Origin: an uncultured Deferribacteres bacterium
Lineage (GTDB): Bacteria; Zhuqueibacterota; JdFR-76; DREG01
Assembly (NCBI GenBank): GCA_913009825.1
Contig: CAJVYQ010000013.1
Span: forward strand, 34,673-98,672
Reading direction: 5' to 3'
DNA length: 64,000 bases
Under the pieces are notes generated by a model. That model had not been told where the DNA came from. It ran no database searches and saw nothing but the letters and a program-made list of their open reading frames with translations. Below are positions 7,914-9,781 of the stretch, piece by piece. The position numbers and the translations under genes were made by a program. The first letter of the stretch is position 1. The number at the start of each line of letters is the position of its first letter.

Positions 7914-7961
7914 TGGGTGATGGAGTTCACCGGAAACGCCTTCGGGCTGATAACTCCTGTT
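7914..7961 (+). ncRNA. Fluoride (crcB-type) riboswitch aptamer
   Basis: TGGGTGATGGAGTTCACCGGAAACGCCTTCGGGCTGATAACTCCTGTT aligns by eye with the known fluoride aptamer layout: GGTGA/TCACC stem, GCC/GGC stem, GGAGTT/AACTCC pseudoknot, conserved GATG and GCTGAT. Confidence 0.9.
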
Positions 7962-8001
7962 TTTCGTGATGTAAGTCATGCTGTTAACAGGAGTTTCTTT
8001 T
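7952..8001 (+). terminator. Riboswitch expression platform: intrinsic terminator overlapping the aptamer
   Basis: AACTCCTGTT (7952-7961) is complementary to AACAGGAGTT (7986-7995), followed by TTCTTTTT. The 5' arm is also the 3' strand of the aptamer pseudoknot, so the two are mutually exclusive. Confidence 0.85.
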
Positions 8002-8017
8002 TGATGAGGCGCTCAAG

Positions 8018-9781
8018 ATGAATATTTCCCTGCAAGATCAATATCAAAACCACCGGCAGCAACTGTTCAAACTTATCTCTGCTTTGTCTGATCTGCTTCC
8101 CGAAGGAAAACTGAAAGACAGAATACCGGTAATAAAAACCGCACTGCAAAAAGAAAAATTCCGTCTGGTGGTTTTAGGTCAATTCAAACGGGGCAAATCA
8201 ACTTTCATCAATGCTCTGTTGGGGGCGCAGGTTCTGCCCACCGATGTGATCCCGGTCACGGCAGTGATCACGGAAATTCTGTTCGGTTCAACTCCGGCAG
8301 CCACCCTCTATTTCTGCGAAGGAGAACCCCGAACCATTGCAATCGACGATTTAAATAGATACATCACCGAAAGTGAAAATCCGGCCAACAAAAAAAATGT
8401 GGATAAAGTGGAAATTCGCTATCCGGCGCCTATCTTAAAAAAGGGACTGATTCTGGTCGATACGCCGGGCGTAGGCTCTATCCACGAACATAATTCGCGC
8501 CTGACACAGGAATATATCCCTCAGGTCGATGTGGCAATTTTTCTCTTTTCTGCGGATCCGCCGTTGACTGAATTAGAGAAGAAATTCTTACAAACCATCT
8601 CTCCACTGGTACCGTATATCGAGTTCGTCCTGAATAAAAAAGATTATCTAAGCACAGACAATCTGAACCGGGTTCTCCGGTTCAATCAACAGGTACTGGA
8701 AGCGGTTCTCGGTATCGAACCGGAGATTTCTGCCATTTCCGCCCTCCGCGGACTGAAAGCGAAACTTGCCGCAAAAACCGAACAGAATAGCGGCCTGCCT
8801 CAACTACAGAAGAAATTGGATGAATTACTTTTACGCAAGCGGGGTAAATACTTACTCATTTCAAACACCGACCGCTTGTTGCGCATCACCAGTGAATGGA
8901 AAAATCTGATTGAGATGGAACAAAAAGCAAAACTGCTCGGCGTTGAGCAATTGCAGGATAATCTAAAAAAATTCAACCGGTTTATAGCGGAGATCAGGAG
9001 GAATTCGGATCATCTGAAATTCTTACTGGAAGGTTTGAAAACACGGCTTCTGGAATCCTTTGATAAAGAAACTGCTGAATTTGCCAAAATGAAAACACCG
9101 GAAATGCTGAATAAAATCGGGCATTTTGTTGAAAATGAAGACGGTTTTTCCAAGAGAAAGCTCATGCAGCAAGTCGAGAAAAAAACGAATCATCTCATCG
9201 TTGATCAGTTCGAACCGTTCCGGCTGCTGATCGAGAAGGATATCCGGGAGGAATATACACGGGAAATTCAAGCTATCAACGGGGATGTGAACCGGATTGT
9301 GAAAGAAATTTACCGGTTTTCAGCCGATCTGTTTCAAATTGCCCGCATGAAAGAGACGGAAGAGGAAATCTGGCAATATAAAAGTCGGTTTTACTACAAA
9401 ACCTGGGATGCAATGACGGGATTGGACCTGCTGGAAAATACTTTCATGACATTTTTGCCGAGAAAGATTTTTTTGTTTTTGCAAAAAAGACATGTAAAAA
9501 AAGTAACGCCCGAAAAACTGGAACGCCAGTTCGGCAGGCTCCGTGCCGACTTGCTCTACCGGCTGCAGGACAATAATCGCCAGTACCTCTTTGAATTTCA
9601 GCGGATGATCGAACGAATCCAGGATGAAATCACCCGCCTCATACAAAAACACGTGCGCCTGAAAGAAGCAGGAGAAACGGAATTACATCAATCGGAAGAA
9701 GAGCAGGAAAGGCTGTTGCAGAAGGCAGAACAACTGATTCGGGAGATGAGTGAAATAAAGAATTTTTGGACACAAGTTTAG
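8018..9781 (+). CDS. Dynamin-like large GTPase
   Basis: 587 aa; G1 GQFKRGKSTFINALLG, G2-like VIPVTAVIT, G3 DTPGVGS, G4 NKKD, long helical C-terminal region. Confidence 0.9.
   Translation: MNISLQDQYQNHRQQLFKLISALSDLLPEGKLKDRIPVIKTALQKEKFRLVVLGQFKRGKSTFINALLGAQVLPTDVIPVTAVITEILFGSTPAATLYFCEGEPRTIAIDDLNRYITESENPANKKNVDKVEIRYPAPILKKGLILVDTPGVGSIHEHNSRLTQEYIPQVDVAIFLFSADPPLTELEKKFLQTISPLVPYIEFVLNKKDYLSTDNLNRVLRFNQQVLEAVLGIEPEISAISALRGLKAKLAAKTEQNSGLPQLQKKLDELLLRKRGKYLLISNTDRLLRITSEWKNLIEMEQKAKLLGVEQLQDNLKKFNRFIAEIRRNSDHLKFLLEGLKTRLLESFDKETAEFAKMKTPEMLNKIGHFVENEDGFSKRKLMQQVEKKTNHLIVDQFEPFRLLIEKDIREEYTREIQAINGDVNRIVKEIYRFSADLFQIARMKETEEEIWQYKSRFYYKTWDAMTGLDLLENTFMTFLPRKIFLFLQKRHVKKVTPEKLERQFGRLRADLLYRLQDNNRQYLFEFQRMIERIQDEITRLIQKHVRLKEAGETELHQSEEEQERLLQKAEQLIREMSEIKNFWTQV

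What the first reader, a model, noticed from the sequence alone, without database searches (positions are those of the whole stretch)
7914..9781. Fluoride riboswitch with overlapping terminator controls a dynamin-like GTPase
The 48 nt before the leader terminator have every element of the crcB-type fluoride aptamer: GGTGA/TCACC stem, GCC/GGC hairpin, GGAGTT/AACTCC pseudoknot and conserved GATG and GCTGAT. The 3' pseudoknot strand AACTCC is also the 5' arm of a terminator (AACTCCTGTT/AACAGGAGTT plus T-run), which is the textbook geometry of a fluoride ON switch. The only gene downstream is a 587-aa dynamin-like GTPase starting 23 nt after the terminator arm. Known fluoride-riboswitch genes that I recall are mainly transporters (crcB, eriC-F) and enzymes such as enolase or pyrophosphatase; a dynamin-like protein is not one I recall. 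Inference: a membrane-remodelling or protective GTPase may belong to the fluoride response, plausible because fluoro-metal complexes (AlFx, MgFx) mimic the gamma-phosphate in GTPases and because HF crosses membranes.
Basis: partly seen in the sequence, partly recalled or inferred. Interest (0 to 1): 0.85.

Follow-up and report, generated by a model that had tools for sequence, protein, structure and literature searches.

The report
Fluoride-switched bacterial dynamin family
A fluoride-sensing RNA switch sits in front of a membrane-shaping (dynamin-like) GTPase gene here, and the same pairing recurs in a whole protein family across about ten bacterial phyla, so this family looks like an overlooked part of how bacteria cope with fluoride poisoning.

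Summary
A full-length fluoride riboswitch (RF01734, 47 bits against a cut-off of 34) lies at 7907-7966. Its 3' pseudoknot strand doubles as the 5' arm of a terminator, and a 587-aa dynamin-like protein (DLP) gene follows at 8018-9781. The pairing is not chance. The DLP belongs to one supported clade. Of 92 clade members examined, 69 have a same-strand fluoride aptamer within 400 nt upstream, 8 more have one further upstream (0.5-2.8 kb), and 3 are too truncated to tell. In a 393-genome survey 20 of 22 DLP genomes carry a fluoride riboswitch, against 83 of 393 overall. Fourteen distant DLPs have none. In other genomes the DLP shares riboswitch-led operons with known fluoride genes: crcB, enolase, pyrophosphatase, MutS-type, Na+/H+ antiporter and Usp. 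The structure model is BDLP/IniA-like with a hydrophobic-basic trunk tip and a clade-specific P-loop (GxFKRGKS/T). The window's genome has no detectable CrcB and no fluoride-type ClC. Best reading: a transcriptional fluoride ON switch for a membrane-remodelling GTPase that protects the envelope during fluoride stress. Regulation is strongly supported by comparative evidence; the membrane role is inferred. I found no paper linking dynamins to fluoride riboswitches, but the supplement of Baker et al. 2012 could not be checked.

The parts
7907..7966 (+). fluoride riboswitch aptamer (RF01734): P1 7916-7919/7928-7931, hairpin 7938-7940/7945-7947, pseudoknot 7922-7927/7952-7957
   Evidence: cmscan 47.0 bits over cut-off 34; 51.8 bits with the independent model R1 built from aptamers not next to a DLP; pseudoknot covariation across 94 distinct aptamers of the DLP loci
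7952..8002 (+). intrinsic terminator: arms 7952-7961 and 7986-7995 plus T-run; the 5' arm is the aptamer's 3' pseudoknot strand
   Evidence: fold -19.3 kcal/mol, z -4.8; same overlap found in 36 of 69 DLP-linked aptamers including this one and its near relatives
8006..8009 (+). putative ribosome-binding site GAGG, 8 nt before the ATG
   Evidence: read from the sequence
8018..9781 (+). dynamin-like GTPase, 587 aa, of the fluoride-riboswitch-linked clade
   Evidence: PF00350 E 8.8e-31; AF2 model pLDDT 86.8; Foldseek best hits IniA and BDLP; clade membership
8177..8203 (+). P-loop GQFKRGKST (residues 54-62); K57 in 89 of 92 clade members, R58 in all 92
   Evidence: K57 aligns by position in the P-loop with catalytic K46 of IniA (PMC6715688)
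8369..8389 (+). clade signature E118-x2-N121-P122-x-N124, just after switch I
   Evidence: invariant in the 92 clade rows, 14-29% in the out-group
9335..9490 (+). trunk tip (residues 440-491): partly disordered, then hydrophobic-basic ...FMTFLPRKIFLFLQKR; proposed lipid-interacting loop
   Evidence: low pLDDT at 446-450 and 458-469; P481 in 97% of clade, net charge of 480-500 median +3 in proteins of median -9; same place in the fold as the IniA lipid-interacting loop

Best explanation
It is a transcriptional fluoride ON switch for a dedicated membrane-remodelling GTPase. Without fluoride, AACTCC (7952-7957) pairs with GGAGTT (7990-7995), forms the terminator and stops transcription before the gene. 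When fluoride enters (as HF) and binds the aptamer with Mg2+, AACTCC is held in the pseudoknot, the terminator does not form, and the DLP is made. The DLP, built like IniA/BDLP with a GTPase head, neck, trunk and a hydrophobic-basic trunk tip, then binds the cytoplasmic face of the membrane and remodels it (fission, fusion or clustering) to keep the envelope intact under fluoride/HF stress. Shown here by computation: aptamer, terminator overlap, conservation of the linkage, operon company, DLP fold. Inferred: fluoride binding and read-through for this RNA, membrane binding, and the protective role.
For: Aptamer and terminator. Conserved linkage: 69 of 92 clade DLPs have a same-strand aptamer within 400 nt upstream (median 40 nt), 8 more have one further upstream (514-2759 nt), 3 are truncated. 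The model used was built without DLP-linked aptamers. Near-unbiased surveys: 12 of 12 clade genomes have a riboswitch against 46 of 197 (Fisher p 8e-9), and 20 of 22 against 83 of 393 (p 7e-13). In one whole phylum 13 of 15 DLPs have the aptamer directly upstream. The clade is one side of a branch (SH-aLRT 99) with 14 non-linked DLPs outside it, and no aptamer was found near those. Aptamers of the DLP loci are under selection as RNA: 99.6% of pseudoknot cells paired, 4 of 6 pseudoknot pairs with double changes, pseudoknot not used in the model. Operon company: crcB-DUF190-CYTH-unknown-enolase-pyrophosphatase-metallophosphoesterase-MFS-DLP-MutS_V behind one aptamer (L227), aptamer-enolase-DLP (L229), aptamer-MutS_V-MutS_V-DLP (L231), aptamer-Na/H antiporter-Usp-DLP (L228); crcB, DUF190, Na/H antiporter and Usp recur elsewhere. 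Fold: IniA 6j72 E 8e-20, BDLP 2j69 E 9e-20, profile matches 2j68 E 1e-50, 6j72 E 2e-35. IniA is a stress-induced DLP that binds acidic lipids through basic loop residues and cuts membranes (PMC6715688). DynA supports membrane integrity in B. subtilis (PMC8844932).
Against: No fluoride-dependent expression or binding was measured for any of these leaders. No sigma-70-like promoter was found in the expected place upstream. Only 36 of 69 linked aptamers show the terminator overlap by a strict exact-match test; others may act on translation. Twelve clade members with enough upstream sequence have no aptamer, so the linkage is not obligatory. Nothing here shows that the DLP touches membranes: the tip is not strongly hydrophobic (KD19 median 1.05) and its model confidence is low. 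Its benefit under fluoride is unknown.
Confidence: 0.62

Rival explanations
1. The DLP is fluoride-regulated but its job is biochemical, not membrane repair: with its unusual P-loop it tolerates, traps or clears GDP-fluorometal complexes (AlFx, MgFx), or replaces a fluoride-poisoned GTPase, as riboswitch-led enolase and pyrophosphatase replace poisoned enzymes.
For: Clade-specific active-site residues K57, R58, E118-N121-P122-N124, S154, N159, D180-P182 are invariant or nearly so and mostly absent in the out-group. Operons hold the fluoride-sensitive enzymes enolase and pyrophosphatase.
Against: The trunk and tip are as well kept as in membrane-active DLPs, which a nucleotide sink would not need. 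K57 is also present in IniA (K46), which has no known fluoride link. No ordinary fluoride-sensitive DLP partner is known here.
Confidence: 0.14
2. The DLP serves a transporter: it helps place, cluster or regulate antiporters or fluoride exporters (CrcB, Na+/H+ antiporter, MFS) in the membrane.
For: Frequent neighbours are Na+/H+ antiporter, CrcB, MFS and DUF190 in the same riboswitch-led runs.
Against: Many DLPs, including this one, stand alone behind their aptamer; only 12 of 44 DLP genomes have a CrcB, and the window's genome has none and only GREGP-type ClC proteins.
Confidence: 0.12
3. The DLP is a general stress or phage-defence factor that happens to ride in stress islands, and fluoride is one of several inducers.
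For: DynA delays phage lysis; the DLP weakly matches the PADLOC LeoA profile (E 3e-13); 12 clade members with upstream sequence lack an aptamer.
Against: Linkage is to the fluoride aptamer specifically and spans the clade; the recurrent neighbours are fluoride genes. No defence genes were recognised among the neighbours I scanned, though no systematic defence search of the loci was made.
Confidence: 0.08
4. Chance juxtaposition of an aptamer and an unrelated gene.
For: The two nearest family members in the survey (G001, G002) have neither.
Against: Rough chance per gene is about 3e-4, yet most of a 92-member clade shows the adjacency.
Confidence: 0.005

Closest known systems
Fluoride riboswitch, crcB motif, RF01734
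   Same: All aptamer elements, score over the curated cut-off, pseudoknot/terminator overlap as described for crcB RNAs (PMC2864571).
   Different: The controlled gene is a dynamin-like GTPase. Papers I could read list exporters, Na+/H+ antiporters, pyrophosphatase, enolase, HAD, formate hydrogenlyase and mutS (PMC11139923; PMC2864571); none names a dynamin.
IniA (Mycobacterium), drug-induced membrane-fission DLP
   Same: Length about 600 aa, GTPase-neck-trunk layout, basic residues at the trunk-tip loop, P-loop lysine three residues before the P-loop GK lysine; top Foldseek hit.
   Different: About 18% identity; different inducer and regulation; clade signatures R58 and E-x2-NPxN not shown for IniA here.
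BDLP of Nostoc (2j68/2j69) and Campylobacter DLP1/2 (5owv)
   Same: Fold and profile matches.
   Different: Longer, with a helical paddle in BDLP; not known to be fluoride-regulated.
LeoABC and DynA
   Same: Dynamin superfamily; weak LeoA profile match; weak DynA match.
   Different: Far below the curated DynA cut-off (54.9 against 1600 bits); different gene neighbourhoods.

Membership tests
Fluoride riboswitch RF01734 | covariance-model match over the curated cut-off, full length | tested here: met
   47.0 bits against 34, model 1-64 of 64
Fluoride riboswitch RF01734 | P1, P3 hairpin and pseudoknot with the conserved GAUG and GCUGAU | tested here: met
   alignment; pair counts over 94 distinct aptamers of the DLP loci
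Fluoride riboswitch RF01734 | expression platform: terminator overlapping the pseudoknot 3' strand | tested here: met
Fluoride riboswitch RF01734 | binds F- with Mg2+ and raises expression | not testable with these tools
   needs in-line probing and transcription assays
Dynamin superfamily | Dynamin-type GTPase domain with G1-G4 motifs | tested here: met
   PF00350 E 8.8e-31; P-loop, T81, DTPG 148-151, NKxD 206-209
Dynamin superfamily | helical neck and trunk with a membrane-binding tip or paddle | tested here: inconclusive
   helices and tip in the model; membrane binding not tested
Dynamin superfamily | oligomerisation and membrane remodelling | not testable with these tools
   needs biochemistry
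IniA family | close sequence kinship, in iniBAC-type context | tested here: not met
   about 18% identity over the fold alignment; context is fluoride genes
DynA (NF052648) | curated score cut-off 1600 bits, two fused dynamin units | tested here: not met
   54.9 bits, single unit
Fluoride-riboswitch-linked DLP clade (defined here) | aptamer upstream plus GxFKRGK and E-x2-NPxN signatures, inside the supported clade | tested here: met

The most novel reading that the evidence does not exclude
A widespread family of bacterial dynamins dedicated to fluoride stress. Membrane remodelling by a large GTPase is a distinct arm of fluoride resistance, in some genomes (such as this one) without any recognised fluoride exporter.
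Probability: 0.5. Interest if true: 0.85.

Novelty: new variant of a known kind. Interest (0 to 1): 0.74.

Why it matters
It gives a large, mostly uncharacterised group of bacterial dynamins (annotated only as 'dynamin family protein', 'GTPase Der' or 'GTPase Era') a defined inducer, and it adds a membrane-remodelling GTPase to a fluoride regulon so far described as exporters, antiporters and fluoride-poisoned enzymes. Both the switch and the enzyme can be tested with small constructs, which makes the physiological role of a bacterial dynamin directly addressable.

Tried and rejected
Single-sequence scan of genome contigs with the window protein found no relative; the profile of 12 homologues found 80. 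Viral contigs gave only one distant relative without an aptamer. No good plasmid homologue: 38 records, none covering 80%. A first aptamer alignment with unturned strands was discarded and redone. Phylum surveys of G179 and G190 covered only 4 and 12 genomes. Whole-genome download was not available. The idea that the flanking inverted repeats make a specific riboswitch-DLP cassette was not supported: the repeat has at least 40 copies elsewhere in the genome. Baker et al. 2012 is not held.

Full report
Observation. The window holds one Rfam match over cut-off, the fluoride riboswitch RF01734 at 7907-7966 + (47.0 bits, cut-off 34, full model length). The sequence shows P1 (7916-7919/7928-7931), the GCC/GGC hairpin (7938-7940/7945-7947) and the GGAGTT/AACTCC pseudoknot (7922-7927/7952-7957). 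AACTCCTGTT (7952-7961) is also the 5' arm of a terminator with AACAGGAGTT (7986-7995) and TTTCTTTTT; this piece folds at -19.3 kcal/mol, z -4.8. The ATG of a 587-aa ORF is at 8018. The protein carries Dynamin_N (E 8.8e-31). It is the only fluoride riboswitch found in the 5.1-Mb, 96%-complete assembly.

Is the pairing chance? No. In the same 197 genomes I searched RF01734 and the protein. The best homologues lay right behind fluoride aptamers: G068, G074, G026, G076, G078, G179, G177, G173, G178 and G190, with G094 about 0.9 kb upstream. Homologues below about 125 bits had none. All 12 genomes with a clade DLP had a riboswitch against 46 of 197 overall (Fisher p 8e-9).

I then built an aptamer model (R1) from 21 aptamers not known to lie next to DLPs, fetched 80 loci by DLP profile alone, and searched them. 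Counting the window and close homologues, 69 of 92 clade DLPs have a same-strand aptamer within 400 nt upstream (median 40 nt), 8 more have one 0.5-2.8 kb upstream, and 3 lie too near a contig end. The count of 92 removes two records that were fetched twice, but near-identical MAGs may remain. The 80 loci were picked by protein similarity, not by riboswitch.

A second survey of 393 genomes (partly overlapping the first) gave 22 genomes with the DLP, 20 of them with RF01734, against 83 of 393 overall (p 7e-13). By place, 13 of 24 DLP hits are directly behind an aptamer and 6 more lie further down a same-strand run behind one (my reading). Genomes are not independent samples, so these p-values overstate the certainty, but the adjacency itself has a rough chance of 3e-4 per gene. 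In the phylum of G177 13 of 15 DLPs have the aptamer directly upstream.

One family. A quick maximum-likelihood tree puts the 92 clade members on one side of a branch (SH-aLRT 99) and 14 non-linked DLPs on the other. The window sits in a 9-member Calditrichota-side group (support 100); 8 are linked and the ninth is cut off at its 5' end. Record labels of linked members cover about ten phyla; these are mostly MAG labels and some may be wrong. Clade signatures absent from most out-group DLPs: P-loop G-x-F-K57-R58-G-K-S/T, E118-x2-N121-P122-x-N124, S154, N159, D180-P-P182.

RNA selection. On 94 distinct aptamers from the DLP loci, 97.4% of pair cells are standard, and 4 of 6 pseudoknot pairs show changes on both sides although the pseudoknot was not in the model; sliding the partners by one to three columns drops pairing to 40-59%. 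By a strict exact-match test 36 of 69 linked aptamers share the terminator geometry, including the window and its near relatives L064-L067 and L085; 10 more have the strand complementary to sequence near the start codon and may act on translation (a heuristic).

Company. Behind single aptamers the DLP travels with the known fluoride regulon: L227 crcB-DUF190-CYTH-unknown-enolase-pyrophosphatase-metallophosphoesterase-MFS-DLP-MutS_V; L229 enolase-DLP; L231 MutS_V-MutS_V-DLP; L228 antiporter-Usp-DLP; L230 MFS-DUF6062-DLP-DUF190-DUF190-crcB. Na+/H+ antiporter, Usp, CrcB, DUF190, DUF6062, MFS, HEAT and an unnamed 147-aa family recur in the 80 loci. Only 12 of 44 DLP genomes have CrcB. The window's genome has none, and both its ClC proteins carry the GREGP motif of ordinary ClC, which by my knowledge of ClC-F motifs speaks against a fluoride exporter. 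ClC-F was not typed in the other genomes, and MAG gaps remain possible.

How it works. Switch: transcriptional ON switch by the strand-exchange geometry described for crcB RNAs (PMC2864571; fluoride binding with Mg2+ and upregulation per PMC11139923). Effector: the AlphaFold2 model (pLDDT 86.8) shows GTPase, neck, long trunk helices and a loosely modelled tip; the best fold matches are IniA and BDLP, and the best sequence-profile matches are BDLP, IniA and Campylobacter DLPs. IniA binds acidic lipids through basic loop residues at the trunk end and cuts membranes, is induced by cell-wall drugs, and uses K46 for charge compensation (PMC6715688). The clade keeps a lysine at that P-loop position and a proline followed by basic residues at the tip (net +3 over residues 480-500 in proteins of median -9). 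Fluoride stress is reported to change genes of membrane structure and integrity and to disturb membrane potential (PMC11139923). So the most likely role is peripheral membrane binding and remodelling to keep the envelope intact. This last step is inference.

Known or new? Searches of the open-access library for fluoride riboswitch with dynamin, for crcB with dynamin, and for bacterial dynamin with fluoride gave no paper making the link. The crcB discovery paper lists mutS, K+/Cl- transport and formate hydrogenlyase genes. Baker et al. 2012 and its supplement could not be read, so a listing there is possible. I rate it a new variant of a known kind: a known riboswitch class and a known superfamily, in an unreported, conserved and clade-defining combination.

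Noticed in passing
window 7688-7823 and 9871-9996: A ~137-nt dispersed repeat (at least 40 scored copies in the assembly, 78-84% identity) flanks the riboswitch-DLP unit on both sides in inverted orientation.
   Followed up: partly
L068 5980-6046 and 6122-6186: Two fluoride aptamers in tandem before one DLP, and a third at 8153-8220 before a Na+/H+ antiporter-Usp pair.
   Followed up: no
L108, L128, L134 and others: Fluoride islands with three or four separate aptamers within 10-14 kb, each before a different gene.
   Followed up: partly
L108:3742-4185, L065:928-1359, L226:3965-4435, L239:9849-10265: A ~147-aa family without any Pfam match that recurs next to the DLP in riboswitch-led operons.
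   Followed up: partly
L128:10437-11099, L147:5209-5868, L064:8907-9563: DUF6062 (PF19538) proteins recur in fluoride-riboswitch operons, sometimes as the first gene.
   Followed up: partly
L097:7576-8769 and similar: An MFS transporter family recurs directly after or before the DLP behind fluoride aptamers.
   Followed up: no
L123:5023-5098 and 5785-7740: A record labelled Micrarchaeota carries an aptamer 687 nt upstream of a clade DLP; it may be a binning error or an archaeal case.
   Followed up: no
window 10338-12748: A PiT-like phosphate permease and a DUF47/PhoU-like gene (my reading of the translations) lie convergent to the DLP on the other strand; not behind an aptamer.
   Followed up: no
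G249:C1:3458275-3483855: A genome outside the DLP clade shows six RF01734 matches within 26 kb, three of them weak.
   Followed up: no
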